From the NCBI RefSeq assembly GCF_001485215.1, contig NZ_BBWW01000001.1:1054001-1118000 (forward strand): a DNA stretch of 64,000 nucleotides, written 5' to 3'. The notes beneath the pieces were generated by a model that saw only the letters and a list, made by a program, of their open reading frames with translations, did no database searches and was not told the DNA's origin. Of this stretch, positions 10,769-59,037 are shown one piece after another (the first letter of the stretch is position 1; the number at the start of each line of letters is the position of its first letter). The stretch is from Leptolyngbya sp. NIES-2104 (GTDB lineage: Bacteria > Cyanobacteriota > Cyanobacteriia > Leptolyngbyales > Leptolyngbyaceae). The position numbers and the translations under genes were made by a program.

Positions 10769-11452
10769 ATGAATACAAAGTGGTCACTCAGTCTCTTATT
10801 TCTATTGAGTCTGATTGTCAGTGCCTGCTCGAATAATACAGCCAATTCAACCGGGACATCTCCATCGCCTGCGATTCAGCCGCCTGTGGTCAGCCCTGAA
10901 CCTTCTCAAACGGTTCAGCCGACAACTTCGCCGACGGTTGAAAAGCCCTCTCCTGAACCTGAAAAGCCGACAACTTCAGCGAAACCGACTCCGGTTACTG
11001 AAGCAAAAACAGCCGAAGTGGTTGTGGATGGATTAAATGTACGATCGGCTCCCGATACCACTTCTCAAGTGCGCGGAACCATTCCGAAAGGAACTCAAGC
11101 TAAAATTATTCAACAGCAAGGAAGCTGGTACTACATCGTCATGGGACGAGTAGAAGGCTGGGTTTCAGGTTCCTACATCAAAGTGTTAGACGGTAATCCC
11201 GGTAGCACTGTATCGAATCCAAAGCCTGTCACTGAGGCAAAAACGGCAGAAGTGATTGTCGATGGATTGAATGTACGATCGGCTCCCGATACCACTTCTC
11301 AAGTGCGCGGAACCATTCCGAAAGGAACTCAAGCCAAAATTATCCAGCAGCAAGGAAGCTGGTACTACATCGTTATGGGACGAGTAGAAGGCTGGGTGTC
11401 GGGTTCCTATATCAAAGTGTTAGACGGTAATCCCGGTAGCGCTCGAAGTTAA
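10769..11452 (+). CDS. Lipoprotein with two tandem SH3b domains
   Basis: 227 residues. A lipoprotein signal peptide with a lipobox ending VSAC (about residue 20), then a Pro/Thr/Ser-rich linker (to about 75), then two bacterial SH3 (SH3b) domains of about 60 residues each, containing VDGLNVRSAPDTTSQVRG and GWVSGSYIKVLDGNPGS. SH3b domains bind cell-wall peptides; the protein is expected to be anchored in the envelope facing peptidoglycan. No catalytic domain is attached. The two SH3b copies are almost identical in DNA (see the repeat). The next two genes also encode secreted proteins, one with SH3b. Confidence 0.88.
   Translation: MNTKWSLSLLFLLSLIVSACSNNTANSTGTSPSPAIQPPVVSPEPSQTVQPTTSPTVEKPSPEPEKPTTSAKPTPVTEAKTAEVVVDGLNVRSAPDTTSQVRGTIPKGTQAKIIQQQGSWYYIVMGRVEGWVSGSYIKVLDGNPGSTVSNPKPVTEAKTAEVIVDGLNVRSAPDTTSQVRGTIPKGTQAKIIQQQGSWYYIVMGRVEGWVSGSYIKVLDGNPGSARS
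10994..11441 (+). repeat. Tandem duplication of an SH3b-coding unit
   Basis: Two direct copies, about 10994-11207 and 11228-11441, with a 234-bp (78-codon) period. Long stretches are identical, including about 66 bases from TGTACGATCGGCTCCCGATA onward. Only scattered, mostly silent differences separate the copies, so the duplication is recent or kept uniform by gene conversion. Confidence 0.9.
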
Positions 11453-32675: not shown

Positions 32676-32797
32676 AAGGTAGACTCCTCGATGAAAGCTC
32701 GTGAAGAACTAGAATTCTGCGATTTCAGTGTAGTTCAGAGTTTTCAAATCGACGCACAAATCTTTTGAGAAGACGGTTTGATCATGCGATCGCCTAA

Positions 32798-33004
32798 GAG
32801 GATGTTTGAAAAGTAATCGTTGTTGCCGCAACCCGCCCTGAAATGAATTTCGGGCTAATCGGCGCAAGTCCATTGAAATGGACTAAGAACCTGTAACTGC
32901 CTCCCAGTCTACTTCAGTAGACTTTCCACGGTTAGCCCGAAATTCATTTCAGGGCGGGAGTCAAACGAGAGCGAAGTGACTTTTTATACTTTTCAAACAC
33001 CCTC
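32798..33004. repeat. Palindromic element, copy 1
   Basis: Core 32832-32958 begins and ends with a perfect 27-bp inverted repeat (CCCGCCCTGAAATGAATTTC..., arms 32832-32858 and 32932-32958). Inside are two small hairpins, GTCCAT-TGAA-ATGGAC and GTCTAC-TTCA-GTAGAC. Outside is a further 17/18-bp inverted pair (32798-32815 and 32987-33004). It lies between the SPOR gene and the Omp85 gene; the last base of the outer arm is the first base of the reverse-complemented Omp85 stop codon. Confidence 0.9.
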
Positions 33005-35115
33005 TAAAATTTCTCTCCAAATCCAAACTGGAATCGTCCTTCTCCTTGATCGTTAATCCCATATCCCGCCCGAATCGTACCTAATGGCGATTTCAACCGC
33101 AGTCCGACCCCAATGCCAAATCCCGAACCCGGTAAACCCCGAACGGTTCCAGGTGCACCTAACACCGAATTCGCTGATCCTAAATCTGAGGCAAAGTCAG
33201 CGAACACAGCACCCCCTAGAATGTTGTAAATCGGGAATCGGTATTCCGCAGACGCAAGAACAAAACTGCGCCCGACAGCAACATCGTTAAATCCATATCC
33301 CCGCACCGAATTTGGACCACCCAGCGTGTACGCATTGTACGGCGGCAAATCTCCGATCGTCGTTCCTGCCTGAACATTAAACGCCAATACTTCAGGCTGT
33401 TGCTGTGTTTTCTCCAGATTAAAGAAATTCACCGGGACATACTGCGAATAGTTCGCTTGCAAACGATTCGAGAGAATGCTGCCACTGCCGATCGGGATTG
33501 ATTGCTCAGTTGTTAATGTCAAAATTGACCCGCTCGATGGATCAACTGGATTGTTGCGCTGATCTCGCACAGCGGTAAAGTTCACGGTCGTCAAATCATC
33601 GATTCCCGTTCCGCTAAAAGACAGCGGTGCGCCGTTTCGATCGCGTCTTGCCACATCGCCATCTCGATCGCGCAAACTAATCCGCGTATAGTTCAATCCT
33701 AAAGTTCCATCCCAACCATTCCCGATCGGGCGATTGACCGCCACGGTTCCACCAAATCGACCTTCACGAGGTCGATCGCCATTCGCTAATTCACTCGCGT
33801 CGTTATCAAACACACGAGAAATGCCGCGCCTCCGAAATCCACTAACGCTATACCCCAATTTATCTGGCTCAGTCGATCGATAAGGACTCACAAACCGTCC
33901 ATCAAACTGCACATCTCGCGTTCCCACGGAGACATTTCCACCCAACTGCTGTCCAACCCCATTAAAGTTCGTGTCGTTATAGTTGAGACTCCCAAAAACG
34001 CCCAAATCCTCGTTGATTCCTCCGCTCACATTCAGTGCGCGACTTCGAGCTTCAGTCAGGTTGTACACAACCGTTGTACGACGAGCATCCCCTTCGAGAG
34101 AAACCCGACCGTTTGTAAATAATCCGGTTTGCAGAATTCGCTGTAAGTCTTCACGGGCAGCCGATTCTTGGAAAATTTGACCGGGTTTGATTTGAATTTG
34201 ATTTCTTAAAAAATCTTCCCTCGTGCGACCCTGAATCGGTTGACCGCGATCGTTAACCAACCGACCTTGCTCATCGGTAAATCTAATTTGAATATTCCCG
34301 ATCGAGCCTTCTGCAACTTCGACCGTCAACACTCCATCCCGATTTGGAACGACTCCGACCACTCGCGCTAAGCTAAATCCATTCTGACGATACCAAGCAT
34401 TAATCTGCCGAATGCTGTCATTAATTGCAGTCGGGCTAACGGGTGCACCAAGTTGGGACTGAAAGAATTGATTGGCGATCGTCGGGGTGAGGGCTTGAGC
34501 ATTGACTAAATTCAGCGATCGAACCGTCGTCGGCTGAACTTGAAAAGTCACGCTCAACCCATTTGGATTCGTGCGAGTCGTGAAGTTCGCCGTACTAAAT
34601 AATCCTGTTTCAAGAATTACAGCAATGTCGCTTTGAAGCTGAGGAGTACTGACATTTCCGCCGGGTTGCGTTTGAATGCGAGACCGAACAAGTTCTTGAA
34701 GTTCGGCAGAAGCTCCCACGATCTGAACATCGGTTGCCGTGAGAACGAGATTCGGTGAAGTTTGAGGTGCAGATGTTGGACGCGGTGGAGTCTGAGGCGC
34801 AGGTGTTGGACGAATTGGAGTTTGGGCGATCGATGGAGCACGATCGACTTCAAGTTTTTGAGCAATTGGTACAGGAGTTGGAGCACGATCGACTTCAAGT
34901 TTTGAAGTGATCGGTTTGCGAGAAAATTCTGGGGTGGGGCGAGGAGATTCGATCGTGACTGTGGGGACGGTTTTACTGCTAGAAACGGCTGGCGTTTTCG
35001 TTTCAACCGCTGAAGGTTCAGTCGGCACAACAACATCTTGAGCAATGGCTTTTTGTGCCAACTCTGAGATAGAAATAAGCCCGATCGCACAGGCGGTGAT
35101 TTTAGAAAAACGCAT
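33004..35115 (-). CDS. Omp85/BamA-family outer-membrane protein
   Basis: About 703 residues from ATG 35115, which begins a signal peptide (MRFSKITACAIGLISISELA). The frame extends to 35190 with GTG, but that lies at the edge of a repeat element. A Pro/Thr-rich periplasmic segment contains two near-identical LEVDRAPTPVP-type units. POTRA domains follow (LVLTATDVQIVGASAELQEL onward; NAWYRQNGFSLARVVGVV; GRTREDFLRNQIQIKPGQIF). The last ~330 residues are a beta-barrel with the Omp85 signature GGPNSVRGYGFNDV and a terminal aromatic (FGFGEKF). It inserts barrel proteins, or in cyanobacteria possibly serves as an outer-membrane channel. Palindromic elements flank it on both sides. Confidence 0.92.
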   Translation of the reverse strand: MRFSKITACAIGLISISELAQKAIAQDVVVPTEPSAVETKTPAVSSSKTVPTVTIESPRPTPEFSRKPITSKLEVDRAPTPVPIAQKLEVDRAPSIAQTPIRPTPAPQTPPRPTSAPQTSPNLVLTATDVQIVGASAELQELVRSRIQTQPGGNVSTPQLQSDIAVILETGLFSTANFTTRTNPNGLSVTFQVQPTTVRSLNLVNAQALTPTIANQFFQSQLGAPVSPTAINDSIRQINAWYRQNGFSLARVVGVVPNRDGVLTVEVAEGSIGNIQIRFTDEQGRLVNDRGQPIQGRTREDFLRNQIQIKPGQIFQESAAREDLQRILQTGLFTNGRVSLEGDARRTTVVYNLTEARSRALNVSGGINEDLGVFGSLNYNDTNFNGVGQQLGGNVSVGTRDVQFDGRFVSPYRSTEPDKLGYSVSGFRRRGISRVFDNDASELANGDRPREGRFGGTVAVNRPIGNGWDGTLGLNYTRISLRDRDGDVARRDRNGAPLSFSGTGIDDLTTVNFTAVRDQRNNPVDPSSGSILTLTTEQSIPIGSGSILSNRLQANYSQYVPVNFFNLEKTQQQPEVLAFNVQAGTTIGDLPPYNAYTLGGPNSVRGYGFNDVAVGRSFVLASAEYRFPIYNILGGAVFADFASDLGSANSVLGAPGTVRGLPGSGFGIGVGLRLKSPLGTIRAGYGINDQGEGRFQFGFGEKF

Positions 35116-35158
35116 AGCTGAACCCACAGAATTAGAACTTTGTGAATGAACAAATCTG

Positions 35159-35357
35159 GGATGTGTTTTAGCACCTTTTGCTTCGTTCACGCCCGCCCCG
35201 GAATGGAATTCGGGGCTAATCGAACGAAGTCCACTAAAGGGGACTGAAAACCAAATTAGATGTCTTCAGTCCGTTTCAACGGACTTCGCACTGTTAGCCC
35301 CGAATTCTATTCCGGGGCGGATGAACAACGCAGCGAGAAGCCTCTAAGACATGTCCT
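35159..35357. repeat. Palindromic element, copy 2
   Basis: Core 35192-35320 with near-perfect arms of the second sequence type (CCCGCCCCGGAATGGAATTC... / ...GAATTCTATTCCGGGGCGG). Inner hairpins are GTCCAC-TAAA-GGGGAC (one mismatch) and GTCCGT-TTCA-ACGGAC. Weaker outer similarity extends the palindrome to about 35159 and 35357. It is located 5' of the Omp85 gene and probably contributes to its leader or promoter region. Confidence 0.88.
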
Positions 35358-35495
35358 AGAAATTAAGCTTAGTTGTATCAGAAAAATCAGCCCATCAGAG
35401 ATTCAATCGATCTCTAATTCGTGATCTGATAAACAGCTTGATGTAAACAGTTGTAGTACTGATTGAAGAACAATTTGAAAGCAGAGTTCCCGTTT

Positions 35496-36284
35496 ATGAA
35501 TCCATCGCTGCATTCCCTCGGTGTTCCTCCGAATGCTTGGTATGTTGATGAATCGATCGCAGATTTAACCCGACCCGCGATCGCACCTCAGCCGATCGTG
35601 CTCGACACCGCAACTAAAACATTGCGTCTAGATCTAGCTAAATCTGCACTGATTGTCATCGACATGCAGAATGATTTTTGTCATCCGGACGGTTGGCTAG
35701 CCCATATCGGAGTCGATGTTACTCCTGCACGATCACCCATTGTTCCTATCCAGCAATTGCTGCCAATTCTGCGACAGATCGGAGTCTCGATCGTATGGGT
35801 GAATTGGGGAAATCGCCCCGATTTGTTAAACATCAGTCCTGCAACCCGACACGTTTACAACCCGACAGGAACGGGGATAGGTTTAGGCGATCCATTGCCG
35901 AAAAACCAAGCGCCTGTGTTGGAAAAAGACAGTTGGGCAGCCGCGATCGTCGATGAACTTCAACCCACCGAGAGCGATGTCAAAATTGACAAATATCGTA
36001 TGAGTGGATTTTGGGATACACCGTTAGACAGTATTTTGAAAAATTTAGGCAAAACAACGCTCTTTTTTGCAGGTGTGAATGCGGATCAATGTGTGATGAC
36101 AACGCTACAAGATGCGAATTTCTTAGGCTATGACTGCATTCTTTTGGAAGACTGTACCGCAACAACTTCGCCAGAATTCTGCTTACAAGCAACCTTGTAT
36201 AATGTAAAACAATGCTTCGGATTTGTGAGCGATTCAACAAAGTTGATTGATGGAATTAAATCAGGTATCAAAGTTTCAAATTAG
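35496..36284 (+). CDS. Isochorismatase-family cysteine hydrolase
   Basis: About 262 residues from ATG 35496 (upstream TTG rejected). Catalytic triad candidates: Asp in ALIVIDMQNDFCHPDGW, Lys in VLEKDSWAA, and nucleophile Cys in FFAGVNADQCVMTTLQDA, followed by GYDCILLEDCTATTS. The fold hydrolyses C-N or enol-ether bonds (ureidoacrylate, nicotinamide, biuret or N-carbamoyl amides). The DMQNDFC and VNADQCV forms are closest to the RutB/amidohydrolase side of the family. No pyrimidine-degradation genes are adjacent, so the substrate is open. Confidence 0.88.
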   Translation: MNPSLHSLGVPPNAWYVDESIADLTRPAIAPQPIVLDTATKTLRLDLAKSALIVIDMQNDFCHPDGWLAHIGVDVTPARSPIVPIQQLLPILRQIGVSIVWVNWGNRPDLLNISPATRHVYNPTGTGIGLGDPLPKNQAPVLEKDSWAAAIVDELQPTESDVKIDKYRMSGFWDTPLDSILKNLGKTTLFFAGVNADQCVMTTLQDANFLGYDCILLEDCTATTSPEFCLQATLYNVKQCFGFVSDSTKLIDGIKSGIKVSN

Positions 36285-36394
36285 TGAAACAATAGCCAAA
36301 CTGCCATACACCTTTCTGATTGATTTTTCTGGTATCAAAACATCCAGAACGAAGACATGATATAGTGTTCCGATTTCCTAGGAAAAACGAAAAT

Positions 36395-37414
36395 ATGGCA
36401 GTTCCTGAAAGTTTAAATTCGCTAAGAATTCCTGATTTTAATGGCGATGGTCGGACTGATCTTTTCAGTTTAAATACCAATACTCGTGTTGGAGAACTTG
36501 CGCTAATTGCAGGAGTTCGATCGCTTGGATCAAGCTCATTTCCATCGATTCCGGCAGGATGGCAAGCGCCGAAATATGGCGATTTTAATGGCGATCGCAA
36601 AACTGATTTGCTGTGGCGAGATACGACCACCGGGGAGAATGGAATTTGGCTCATGAATGGCACATCGATTCAGGGTGGAGCCTTTCTCGATCCGCTTCAA
36701 GGCGATTGGAGAAGCGTGATCGGTGAATTTAACGGCGATGGAAAAACCGACCTATTCTGGTACAACTTCAGCACCGGAGACTATCAACTTTGGTTAATGG
36801 ATGGATCGCAAAAAACTCGACAAATCGGCGGCAAAATTGACGGAGGATGGGAACCGTCGATCGCTGATTTCAACGGAGACAATCGTACCGATTTGTTCTG
36901 GCGCAACCCAGAAACAGGCGGAAATTCATTCTGGACATTTGACCCGCAAACATTAACGATTTTCGGTGAGTCGCTCCCCGTAAAACCGATCACTTCAAGC
37001 GCTGAAGTGATTGATTTCAATGGAGACGGACGTAGTGGTCTCTTTTGGCGCGATCGCTTAACTGGGCAGAATCAAGTTTGGACTTGGACAGGAAGCGGAT
37101 TCCAACCTGATGCAACCTCGATCGAGCTTCCGAGCACAAGCAGCGATCTCACGATTCGGATTGCTGATTTTAACGATGATGGTCGCACTGATTTTCTCGT
37201 TCGCAATCCCAGCACCGCCGAAGATCAAGTCTGGCTCTCTGAAGGGACGAGAGTGCAAATTCTCCCGGTCGCGAGTCAATCCGCTGGGTTCCGAGCGGCG
37301 ATCGGAGATTACAACGGCGATCGATTTTCAGATATTCGCTGGACAACAACGGATGGAACGCAGAGCGTCATTTGGTTCAGCAATGGAATTCTACCGAAAC
37401 CAATGGTGCCGTAG
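36395..37414 (+). CDS. FG-GAP/VCBS repeat protein (calcium-binding propeller)
   Basis: About 339 residues from ATG 36395, with AGGAAAA about 9 bases upstream. Seven repeats of about 45 residues each carry a DFNGDGRTDLF-type loop (also DFNGDRKTD, EFNGDGKTD, DFNGDNRTD, DFNGDGRSG, DFNDDGRTD and DYNGDRFSD), the calcium-binding loop of integrin-like FG-GAP propellers. Seven units would close one propeller that makes up the entire protein. No signal peptide is visible, even in the longer frame to 36320, which is odd for a calcium-binding adhesion-type protein. It may be exported by a non-Sec route. Confidence 0.88.
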   Translation: MAVPESLNSLRIPDFNGDGRTDLFSLNTNTRVGELALIAGVRSLGSSSFPSIPAGWQAPKYGDFNGDRKTDLLWRDTTTGENGIWLMNGTSIQGGAFLDPLQGDWRSVIGEFNGDGKTDLFWYNFSTGDYQLWLMDGSQKTRQIGGKIDGGWEPSIADFNGDNRTDLFWRNPETGGNSFWTFDPQTLTIFGESLPVKPITSSAEVIDFNGDGRSGLFWRDRLTGQNQVWTWTGSGFQPDATSIELPSTSSDLTIRIADFNDDGRTDFLVRNPSTAEDQVWLSEGTRVQILPVASQSAGFRAAIGDYNGDRFSDIRWTTTDGTQSVIWFSNGILPKPMVP

Positions 37415-37492: not shown

Positions 37493-37752
37493 GGTAACTG
37501 AAATCTTGCGCCATTTTCAAGAAGGCGTATTTCGAGCATTTCGTTCATCGCATTCACCCGCCCCGGAATGGAATTCGGGGCTACCTGTGCGAAGTCAGTT
37601 GAAACTGACTCAAGAAGCCGAATCTACGCTCTTCAGTCCCCTTTAGTGGACTTCGTTCTGTTAGCCCCGAATTCCATTCCGGGGCGAGGCAGCGCAATGA
37701 ACAAAACGCTCGAAATTCGTCCTGTCGCCATTGGTACAAGATTTCAGGTAAC
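37493..37752. repeat. Palindromic element, copy 3, with long outer arms
   Basis: Core 37557-37686 is of the second arm type (CCCGCCCCGGAATGGAATTC...). Inner hairpins are GTCAGT-TGAA-ACTGAC and GTCCCC-TTTA-GTGGAC. The outer ~60 bases on each side are also inverted copies at roughly 70% identity (CTGAAATCTTG and ATTTCGAGC...TTCAT are shared), so the total palindrome is about 260 bp. The right arm contains the stop codon of ftsH. Confidence 0.88.
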
Positions 37753-52067: not shown

Positions 52068-53099
52068 TTAGGGCTTGCGGATATAGCCCCATTTTTGATT
52101 CAATTTAACGCGGGCTAACCCTTCTCGAAACGAGCCAACCTCCTCGAATTGAGGCGCGATCGCAATTTTTCCAGTGGTATCAATAAAGCCCCATTTGTCA
52201 CCCATTTTCACGGGTGCTAGTCCATCTGAAAAGTCTCCAGCAAATTCATATTTTGGCTGGACTACAAACTTACCAGATTTATCGATATAGCCCCATTTTT
52301 GATTGCTTTCAACTAACGCTAATCCGTTAGAAAAATCAGAGGCAAAGGAAAATTGAGGTGCGATCGCAATTTTTCCACTCGAATCGATATATCCCCATTG
52401 TTTGCCTACTCGAACTCGCGCCATTGAATCCGCTAGATTAAATGCTCCATCAAATTGGGGTTGAGTCACAAACTGTCCACTTTGATTGATATAGCCCCAT
52501 TTCTTCCCGATTCGCGCTGGTGCAAGTCCGGCTGAAAACCGCCAAGCATCCTCGAATTTTGGCTCAATGATCATTCTGCCAGTTTGATCAATGTAGCCAT
52601 ATTTTTCACCGAGTTTGACTGCTGCAAATCCCTGTGAAAATCCCGATGTCAGGGTGAATTTTGGCGGGATCACAACCTCTCCAGTCGGTTTGATAAATCC
52701 GTAGCGTTGATTCACTCGAATCGCTGCGAGTCCTTCTTGGAATCTGGAAACTTGTTCGTATCGCGGCTCGATCGCGAAGTCTCCCTGTCGGTTCAGATAT
52801 CCGAACAGTCCATCGAGCCGCACGATCGCGAGTCCTTCAGAAAATGGCGCGTAAGCTTCTAGCTCCATTTTGGGTGTGACGGTCAGCCGTCCTGAATGAT
52901 CGATGTAGCGAAACTCTCGACCGAATTGGACTAATGCAGCCCCTTCAGCAAAATCGGAAGCACTATCGAATTGATTCTCGATCGCGAATTCGGTCGGAGT
53001 GAGGGCGATGGCGCGTTGTTCGATCGCAACTTTCTGAGGAGCCGCACAAGCTCCGACGGTTGTTAGACTAAGCGCCGCAAGCAAAAGGAGGCGAAACAT
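52068..53099 (-). CDS. WG-repeat lipoprotein
   Basis: About 343 residues from ATG 53099 (upstream extension to 53171 rejected). The signal peptide ends in lipobox VGAC (about residue 18). After this, eight complete and one terminal WG repeat follow, each about 35 residues with the form KWGYIDKSGKFVVQP then FSDGLA. WG repeats are thought to form beta-rich solenoids for protein binding; no enzyme domain is present. Anchored in the envelope. The substrate or partner is unknown. Confidence 0.9.
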   Translation of the reverse strand: MFRLLLLAALSLTTVGACAAPQKVAIEQRAIALTPTEFAIENQFDSASDFAEGAALVQFGREFRYIDHSGRLTVTPKMELEAYAPFSEGLAIVRLDGLFGYLNRQGDFAIEPRYEQVSRFQEGLAAIRVNQRYGFIKPTGEVVIPPKFTLTSGFSQGFAAVKLGEKYGYIDQTGRMIIEPKFEDAWRFSAGLAPARIGKKWGYINQSGQFVTQPQFDGAFNLADSMARVRVGKQWGYIDSSGKIAIAPQFSFASDFSNGLALVESNQKWGYIDKSGKFVVQPKYEFAGDFSDGLAPVKMGDKWGFIDTTGKIAIAPQFEEVGSFREGLARVKLNQKWGYIRKP

Positions 53100-53217
53100 A
53101 ACCGTAGTGTGAAAAACGAATACGCTTAGTTTAACGAGGAATAGAAATCGCAACACTAAGATTAGATACAAGTAATCGATCGCCGTTAAACTAAAAGCAC
53201 TATCGTAAATTACGCAA

Positions 53218-58794: not shown

Positions 58795-58810
58795 AGAGAT
58801 GTGTATAGAT

Positions 58811-58982
58811 AGTTCCTTCGCTACGTTGCGCTCCCGCCCTGAAATGAATTTCGGGCTAATCGACGAAAGTCTACTGAAGTAGACTTGGAACTAGGTTCAA
58901 GTTCTTAGTCCATTTCTAATGGACTTACGCCGATTAGCCCGAAATTCTATTTCAGGGCGGGCTAGGGTAGCAACGAGAACTG
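58811..58982. repeat. Palindromic element, copy 4
   Basis: Core 58833-58961 with near-perfect arms of the first type (CCCGCCCTGAAATGAATTTC... / ...GAAATTCTATTTCAGGGCGGG). Inner hairpins are GTCTAC-TGAA-GTAGAC and GTCCAT-TTCTA-ATGGAC. Weaker outer similarity (AGTTCCTTCGCTACG versus the inverted right flank) reaches about 58811 and 58982. Confidence 0.88.
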
Positions 58983-59037
58983 CTCAAACATTCTCTAATG
59001 ATTTTTTGAGCAGATCAACCCAGACACACTTTAGAAC

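What the first reader, a model, noticed from the sequence alone, without database searches (positions are those of the whole stretch)
32798..33004. A dispersed palindromic family with base-pair covariation (four copies)
Seen directly: copies at cores 32832-32958, 35192-35320, 37557-37686 and 58833-58961 share a ~127-130-bp plan. An outer ~27-bp stem encloses two inner hairpins with loops TGAA (left) and TTCA (right) and minor variants. Outer stems are of two sequence types (CCCGCCCTGAAATG... and CCCGCCCCGGAATGG...) and both sides change together. Inner hairpin stems follow GTCNNN-TGAA-NNNGAC, where NNN differs in every copy yet its partner compensates (CAT/ATG, TAC/GTA, AGT/ACT, CGT/ACG). That is what selection on a folded DNA or RNA would leave. 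Each half is an inverted REP-like unit, so the whole resembles a REPIN or a MITE mobilised by an absent transposase.
Basis: partly seen in the sequence, partly recalled or inferred. Interest (0 to 1): 0.85.

Follow-up and report, generated by a model that had tools for sequence, protein, structure and literature searches.

The report
Double-hairpin REP pairs inside MITEs
The four palindromes belong to a large family of mobile DNA repeats in cyanobacteria: pairs of two-hairpin units like those found beside a little-studied single-strand-cutting transposase gene, many of them carried in this genome inside miniature transposons that a different enzyme moves.

Summary
At least 149 places on the chromosome carry the core, and relatives occur widely in Cyanobacteria. 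Each copy is an inverted pair of a ~54-nt unit: outer hairpin, TAATAGC-like spacer, inner AGTC..GACT hairpin. Across species the outer hairpin covaries strongly.

In other genomes the same units lie beside one branch of Y1 (HUH) transposase genes, matching subclass 1.2, which its describers list as having no REP. Units lie beside 32 of 34 genes of that branch and 0 of 43 other Y1 genes examined. The only Y1 gene found in this genome is decayed and is followed by such a unit. So the core is best read as a REPIN-like pair.

Here many pairs also sit inside MITE arms. Copy 1 (32798-33004) has the ends and 3-bp TNA duplication of an IS5-family element present in seven copies. Copy 2 has other ends and an empty site in same-genus genomes. 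One composite is nested in another with a TAA duplication.

Action by the Y1 enzyme is inferred, not shown.

The parts
32798..33004 (+). Copy 1: complete 207-bp composite, A-type core inside TIR-A MITE arms (GAGGATGTTTGAAAAG...CTTTTCAAACACCCTC)
   Evidence: Read; 40 scored relatives of 197 candidates in own genome; end class and duplication statistics
32795..32797 (.). Left copy of the TAA target duplication of copy 1
   Evidence: Sequence; TNA duplication statistics
33005..33007. Right copy of the TAA target duplication of copy 1; the minus-strand ORF ending at 33004 takes its stop codon from this junction
   Evidence: Sequence, ORF list
32831..32884 (+). Copy 1, left REP unit (outer and inner hairpin)
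   Evidence: R2 60.6 bits, E 1.9e-15
32906..32959 (-). Copy 1, right REP unit, inverted
   Evidence: R2 49.5 bits, E 2.7e-12
35156..35360 (+). Copy 2: insertion of about 205 bp, B-type core with B-type ends, YTAR-like flanks CTGG/CTAG
   Evidence: Uninterrupted counterpart (5 bp in its place) in same-genus genomes G004 (L402) and G003 (L397)
35191..35245 (+). Copy 2, left REP unit
   Evidence: R2 E 7.2e-11
35268..35322 (-). Copy 2, right REP unit
   Evidence: R2 E 8.7e-14
37495..37750 (+). Copy 3: B-type core inside 121-nt arms that are 74% complementary; ends match neither TIR class used
   Evidence: Inverted repeat I1; class '--' (arm z 12.9)
37556..37610 (+). Copy 3, left REP unit
   Evidence: R2 E 4.4e-11
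37635..37689 (-). Copy 3, right REP unit
   Evidence: R2 E 6.9e-10
58796..58995 (-). Copy 4: A-type core with worn TIR-A-like ends (GAGATGTGTATAGATAG / CTGCTCAAACATTCTC)
   Evidence: Read; neighbours
58832..58885 (+). Copy 4, left REP unit
   Evidence: R2 E 1.1e-13
58907..58962 (-). Copy 4, right REP unit
   Evidence: R2 E 7.6e-12

Best explanation
The ~130-bp core is a REPIN-like, non-autonomous element: the two inverted double-hairpin ends that accompany a Y1 (HUH) transposase gene of TnpA subclass 1.2, without the gene. Each 54-nt unit has an outer hairpin, a TAATAGC-like spacer and an inner AGTC..GACT hairpin. Inferred working: a subclass-1.2 enzyme recognises the hairpins in single-stranded DNA and cuts and joins unit pairs, as is proposed for TnpA_REP and REPs. 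The only Y1 gene found in this genome is decayed, so its pairs look orphaned. Many of them lie inside MITE arms, and the A-type composites have spread by cut-and-paste with an IS5-family transposase acting on the outer inverted repeats (3-bp TNA duplications); at least one B-type composite inserted with different ends at a YTAR-like site. Shown: inverted unit pairs, covariation, units beside subclass-1.2 genes, IS5 end and duplication match, one empty site, one nested insertion. Inferred: what the Y1 enzyme does to the units, and how a pair entered the MITE arms.
For: Units beside 11 of 11 genes of one Y1 branch (R2 in 9, inverted-flank z >= 5 in 6) and 0 of 38 other Y1 places; in a second set returned by the tool, 21 of 23 (R2 in 17, z >= 5 in four more) and 0 of 5 weaker Y1 matches. 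Where R2 matches, the nearest unit is at most 147 nt from the matched stretch (26 loci). Proteins carry HxH, WQ and Y---Q--HH in 10 of 10 aligned, the subclass 1.2 signature. In L381 and L378 the gene lies between inverted units, as if in the middle of a core; in L374-L376 the gene's 3' end overlaps a unit. The own decayed Y1 gene is followed by a B-type half-core. Two unit types go with two Y motifs. MITE layer: IS5-family element L156-L162, 7 of 7 with identical TNA flanks, 209.7 bits to NCBIfam transpos_IS5_3, cut-off 110; 37 of 66 two-ended copies with identical 3-bp flanks, shuffles mean 19.4, maximum 30 of 2000; nested insertion L197 with TAA on both sides; empty site of copy 2.
Against: No cleavage, binding or movement by a subclass-1.2 enzyme was shown. 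L384, sister to the branch and also bearing a Y---Q--HH motif (YIDTQEEHH), has no unit by either test (z 4.0), so counting it gives 32 of 35; L490 (z 4.7) and L497 (z 0.6) also miss the criteria. R2 contains dimers from L217, L218 and L221, which lie beside three of the 11 genes, so those three R2 matches are by construction. No empty site of a bare unit pair was found, so unit ends are not fixed. L154, a single IS5-like copy, has unequal flanks (TCA/TTA). No helper for the B-type ends was found. Two of five covariation measures do not exceed the shuffles.
Confidence: 0.78

Rival explanations
1. Ordinary MITE only: the core is the palindromic inside of an IS5-type MITE and its fold is passive.
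For: In this genome TIRs and TNA duplications fit DDE transposition; 60 A-cores and 6 B-cores of 149 have TIR-A at both ends.
Against: The units occur beside Y1 genes in other genomes, with other ends, or without significant arms (26 of 34 dimers), and they covary across species.
Confidence: 0.1
2. Pairing is kept by a mutational process, not by selection: template switching or gene conversion between arms restores palindromes and makes paired changes.
For: Paired changes in inner hairpins often differ as blocks of three bases (CAT/ATG, CGT/ACG, AGT/ACT), as one switching event would give; two of five covariation measures do not exceed shuffles.
Against: Spacer and loop sequence are kept across many genera; an A-G mismatch persists in most B-type left inner hairpins shown; unit type goes with transposase branch. 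It may act together with selection.
Confidence: 0.25
3. RNA-level function: the element is kept as a bidirectional terminator or mRNA-stabilising structure at gene ends.
For: Of 149 places 59 lie in convergent, 71 in tandem and 13 in divergent gaps and 5 inside ORFs; other gaps of 60 bp or more in the same loci are 3 convergent, 35 tandem, 23 divergent (crude ORFs). Hairpins fold on both strands.
Against: No Rfam match in the window; avoidance of promoters and genes by harmful insertions gives the same bias; the link to Y1 genes is not explained.
Confidence: 0.15

Closest known systems
REPIN/RAYT (TnpA_REP) systems, REPtrons
   Same: Dispersed extragenic palindromic units in inverted pairs, flanking a low-copy Y1 transposase gene
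   Different: Unit has two hairpins and no GT[AG]G foot in its consensus; the enzyme is IS200-like subclass 1.2, not class 2
TnpA-Y1 subclass 1.2 of Quentin et al. 2018 (PMC6006769; sections 12 and 18 and passages read)
   Same: HxH, WQ, Y---Q--HH signature, size, Cyanobacteria
   Different: Described as 'REP: no' and generally without terminal structures; here units lie beside 32 of 34 genes of the branch
IS5-family MITEs
   Same: TIRs of a resident IS5-family element, TNA duplication, about 207 bp, no gene
   Different: Carries a REP pair whose relatives occur with other ends or with none
GTAG-15 REP dimers within palindromes in Anabaena variabilis (PMC3733652, passages read)
   Same: REP dimers embedded in longer palindromic arms
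   Different: GTAG-tagged; the one match to the published arm in held loci (L290) adjoins sequence that is not our unit
Non-autonomous IS200/IS605 derivatives (PATEs; recalled, search listing only)
   Same: Ends of a Y1 element without its gene
   Different: Ends are inverted two-hairpin units, not single subterminal hairpins

Membership tests
Canonical REP/RAYT (REPIN) system | Dispersed, mostly extragenic palindromic unit in high copy | tested here: met
   149 places, 5 inside an ORF over 150 aa by crude calls
Canonical REP/RAYT (REPIN) system | Units in inverted pairs | tested here: met
   Four inverted pairs in the window
Canonical REP/RAYT (REPIN) system | 5' GT[AG]G tetranucleotide at the hairpin foot | tested here: not met
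   Consensus of 61 units shows a TAATAGC-like spacer and no GT[AG]G foot
Canonical REP/RAYT (REPIN) system | Y1 gene flanked by the units | tested here: met
   32 of 34 genes of one branch, 0 of 43 others; decayed in own genome
Canonical REP/RAYT (REPIN) system | Transposase of the TnpA_REP class (class 2) | tested here: not met
   NCBIfam transpos_IS200 86.2, 74.2, 64 bits (cut-off 55); REP_Tyr_transpos 22.3 and 21.4 in two of three (cut-off 80)
Canonical REP/RAYT (REPIN) system | Unit bound and cut by the Y1 enzyme | not testable with these tools
   Needs biochemistry
TnpA-Y1 subclass 1.2 | HxH, WQ and Y---Q--HH | tested here: met
   Invariant in 10 of 10 aligned
TnpA-Y1 subclass 1.2 | Low genomic copy number | tested here: met
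   34 strong places in 25 genomes of 292 searched
TnpA-Y1 subclass 1.2 | No REP beside the gene (as published) | tested here: not met
   Units beside 32 of 34
IS5-family MITE (copy 1, A type) | TIRs of a resident IS | tested here: met
   Seven 915-bp copies with ends within 2 mismatches of 17
IS5-family MITE (copy 1, A type) | Target duplication of that IS | tested here: met
   37 of 66 identical 3-bp flanks, shuffles at most 30; IS 7 of 7
IS5-family MITE (copy 2, B type) | Resident helper with the same ends | tested here: inconclusive
   No close match among 30 PF01609 places apart from TIR-A-like L156-L159; other transposase families not searched

The most novel reading that the evidence does not exclude
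Subclass-1.2 HUH transposases, published as having no REP, are the motors of a second REP system with its own double-hairpin unit, spread through Cyanobacteria and split into at least two co-diverging enzyme/unit types. In some genomes its REP pairs were captured by DDE MITEs, giving chimeric elements that can be moved by two unrelated chemistries and keep spreading after the Y1 enzyme has died, as here.
Probability: 0.65. Interest if true: 0.82.

Novelty: new variant of a known kind. Interest (0 to 1): 0.72.

Why it matters
A transposase subclass described in 2018 without a DNA partner appears to have one, so what it acts on becomes directly testable. It adds a REP architecture (two hairpins, no GTAG foot) outside the TnpA_REP class, and the REP-in-MITE composites are a concrete case of repeats outliving their own enzyme by riding on another transposon.

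Tried and rejected
Rejected: (a) passive MITE interior, because the units lie beside Y1 genes and occur with other ends or none; (b) a described RNA family: no Rfam match in the window at gathering scores, and in 12 related loci only an RNase P gene above its cut-off, with three sub-cut-off matches away from the cores; (c) GTAG-15 REPs, because sequence beside the one match to the published palindrome arm is not our unit (one arm in one locus, so weak); (d) an intact resident Y1, since one decayed place was found, 5 candidates scored; (e) plasmid carriage: copy 1 had no similar DNA in the plasmid collection at E <= 1e-5 (records of very near genomes may be left out there).

Led nowhere: empty sites for copies 1 and 3, which lie at synteny breaks; a helper for B-type ends; the idea that the 82-bp deletion derivatives moved after deletion (L182 and L188 differ and L188 lacks clean flanks). 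Insertion into palindromes is not supported: 7 of 22 own copies without recognised ends have arm z >= 4, but so do 4 of 22 mismatched pairs. A crude hairpin-pair count did not discriminate: pairs in 4 of the 11 branch loci and in 3 of 38 others (L355, L361, L369).

Biases: inner hairpins for A2 were chosen for pairing (at least 6 pairs), so only the outer-hairpin covariation is unselected; two units of L268 were left out of A2 (63 listed, 61 used), as were units not 54 nt long or containing N. I picked the 20 loci after seeing adjacency; the 30 were returned by the tool, one per genome. R2 holds dimers from L217, L218 and L221 (beside the genes of L376, L374 and L375) and from Desmonostoc, which L479 resembles. 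Counts: 51 sources are 49 places (two fetched twice); of the 25 second-set branch loci, L473 and L496 were already known and were dropped, leaving 23. The downstream stretch began 20 nt earlier than. The motif patterns were written after seeing the sequences; its 23-of-35 count used rounded values and is replaced by 29 of 35. ORF contexts come from a crude caller; one of 149 places had no neighbour on one side.

Full report
WHAT IS THERE. A unit model run unfiltered over the window finds exactly eight full units in four inverted pairs. Each unit is about 54 nt: an outer hairpin, a spacer that reads TAATAGC in the consensus, and an inner AGTC..GACT hairpin. Copy 1 is a complete 207-bp element, 32798-33004, with TAA on each side.

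HOW MANY. In the own genome (6.39 Mb, 5 contigs) the core model R1 gave 150 scored matches of 2269 candidates: 149 distinct places, all at E <= 3.1e-24 and all on contig C1. With an even spread the chance of none on the other 0.69 Mb would be 3.9e-8, though only the best 150 candidates were scored. Besides the two large core types (A, B) I saw a third, C, in five loci (L184, L186, L192, L195, L198), with the same plan and another sequence. R1 matched 28 of 58 genomes, the own one included, and 8 of 8 of its genus.

STRUCTURE. Among 49 cores of this genome the outer stem varies mainly by one fixed A/B difference, which is weak evidence. On 61 units, nearly all from other species, 94.5% of cells pair (shuffled 73.5%), the covariation score is 0.550 (shuffled 0.156 +/- 0.011; slid versions at most 0.087), and 8 of 9 outer-hairpin pairs changed on both sides. 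Two of the five measures do not exceed the shuffles: pairs with a change on both sides (11 against 9.4; 43 of 500 as high) and further pair types (28 against 28.7). Inner hairpins were picked for pairing, so the outer hairpin is the unselected evidence. In 29 of 35 dimers the two outer arms are under 70% alike, while each arm pairs with itself (mean 0.816; shuffled 0.605, sd 0.083; 39 of 58 arms above the 95th percentile). The conserved plan is therefore four hairpins, not one 27-bp stem.

THE Y1 CONNECTION. A search of the own genome for Y1_Tnp found one place: it begins at profile position 25 and has an internal stop. It is followed by a B-type half-core, L229:1859-1914. Of 58 genomes 48 have Y1 genes. 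In three genera (G022, G028, G033) the best core match lay beside a Y1 gene, with dimers in tandem at the gene's 3' end; the gene ends overlap a unit by 17 to 32 nt. A tree of 49 Y1 places puts the unit-bearing genes in one branch of 11 (support 0.921). All 11 have units (R2 E <= 0.01 in 9; inverted-flank z >= 5 in 6; union 11). The other 38 have no R2 match and z at most 4.0; one of them, L384, is sister to the branch and shares the Y---Q--HH motif.

SECOND SET. A profile of the branch (A3) was run on 292 phylum genomes. Strong matches (at least 131 bits, 25 genomes) were separated from the rest (at most 80 bits). Of the 23 loci not already known, 21 have units (R2 in 17, z >= 5 in four more); L490 (z 4.7) and L497 (z 0.6) miss the criteria; 0 of 5 weaker Y1 matches pass. 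Together 32 of 34 against 0 of 43; counting L384 with the branch, 32 of 35 against 0 of 42. Where R2 matches, the nearest unit is 14 to 147 nt from the matched stretch (26 loci). A named example is Coleofasciculus sp. LEGE 07092 (L270): a 149-aa gene with a unit just upstream.

WHICH Y1. Ten aligned proteins share HxH, WQ and Y---Q--HH without exception. Quentin et al. 2018 (PMC6006769; sections 12 and 18 read, other passages found) define subclass 1.2 by that signature, place it mostly in Cyanobacteria and Bacteroidetes, list 'no' under REP, and say it is generally without terminal IS200 structures. NCBIfam calls three of ours IS200-like; the REP-transposase model reaches 22 and 21 bits in two of them, cut-off 80. 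The branch splits by Y motif: the 8 NQ[AP]xHH genes have 6 to 19 hits to patterns of a GGCGATT..ATCGC / AACCCGC unit type of the same plan, the others 0 to 4 (patterns written).

THE MITE LAYER. The end GAGGATGTTTGAAAAGT occurs 177 times in the genome with up to 2 mismatches, control 1. Of the 149 places, 60 A-cores and 6 B-cores have this end on both sides, 20 B-cores have the other end type on both sides, 41 have one recognised end or a mixture, and 22 have none. An IS5-family element of 915 bp with the same ends is present in seven copies, 7 of 7 with identical TNA flanks; a further single element (L154) has unequal flanks, TCA/TTA. Of 66 two-ended copies 37 have identical 3-bp flanks; shuffles mean 19.4, maximum 30 of 2000. 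In L197 a 209-bp A composite sits inside a B core with TAA on both sides. Copy 2 has an uninterrupted counterpart in two same-genus genomes: about 205 bp lie between window 35155 and 35361 where they have 5 bp, at a TTAA-like site; other genus members also lack the insert but align less closely. Outside this genome arms beyond the units are significant (z >= 4) in 7 of 33 dimers; with L001 from this genome, 8 of 34. So the unit pair, not the arms, is the constant part.

MECHANISM. Shown: inverted unit pairs, their place beside subclass-1.2 genes, and TIR-bounded insertions with duplications in this genome. Inferred: a subclass-1.2 enzyme acts on single-stranded units as TnpA_REP is proposed to act on REPs; gene-less pairs are its non-autonomous products; some were caught in MITE arms and spread by DDE transposases, which would explain the high copy number in a genome whose Y1 gene is dead. 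Position bias (59 convergent, 71 tandem, 13 divergent, 5 inside ORFs of 149; other gaps in the same loci 3, 35, 23) fits REP-like location at gene ends and also selection against harmful insertions.

KNOWN OR NEW. It works like a REPIN/RAYT system but fails two defining features of canonical REPs (GT[AG]G foot, class-2 enzyme), so I do not file it as one. REP dimers within palindromic arms have a precedent in GTAG-15 of A. variabilis (PMC3733652, passages). Searches of the held open-licence library for REPIN + RAYT + cyanobacteria (3 papers), tyrosine transposase + cyanobacteria + inverted repeats + non-autonomous (3), palindrome-associated transposable elements (3), cyanobacterial MITEs (20 of 40 listed), palindromic repeats in cyanobacterial genomes (5), the Elhai title (4) and REPIN + RAYT since 2018 (12) listed nothing that, by title, abstract start or passages read, links subclass 1.2 to a repeat. 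PMC8266576 was searched for four terms without a hit. Elhai et al. 2008 could not be read. The IS5-subgroup target rules (TNA, YTAR) and the PATE comparison are recalled.

Noticed in passing
window 33004-37405: The gene block between copies 1 and 3 lies away from both of its window neighbours in the same-genus genomes G002 and G004 (different places on contig C1), so both ends of a rearranged block coincide with copies.
   Followed up: partly
own genome, contigs C2-C5: None of the 149 scored cores lies on the smaller contigs, although one of the seven IS5-family copies (L162) is on C2.
   Followed up: partly
L184, L186, L192, L195, L198: A third core type (C) with the same plan and a different sequence in all stems lies between TIR-A ends.
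   Followed up: no
L181, L182, L183, L188, L189: Short core-less or core-deleted TIR-A elements of 55 to 83 bp.
   Followed up: partly
L270:4925-5130: In Coleofasciculus a MITE with TCTTGCACC-type ends and its own unit pair appears to sit in the loop of another unit's inner hairpin.
   Followed up: no
L243: A full unit pair in a Chloroflexota MAG contig (CSMAG_882): possible spread beyond Cyanobacteria, or a binning error.
   Followed up: no
window 10973-11440: A 234-bp tandem duplication, 91% identical, next to or within the ORF 10769-11452.
   Followed up: no
window 52080-52705: A 102-bp periodic repeat inside the ORF 52068-53171.
   Followed up: no
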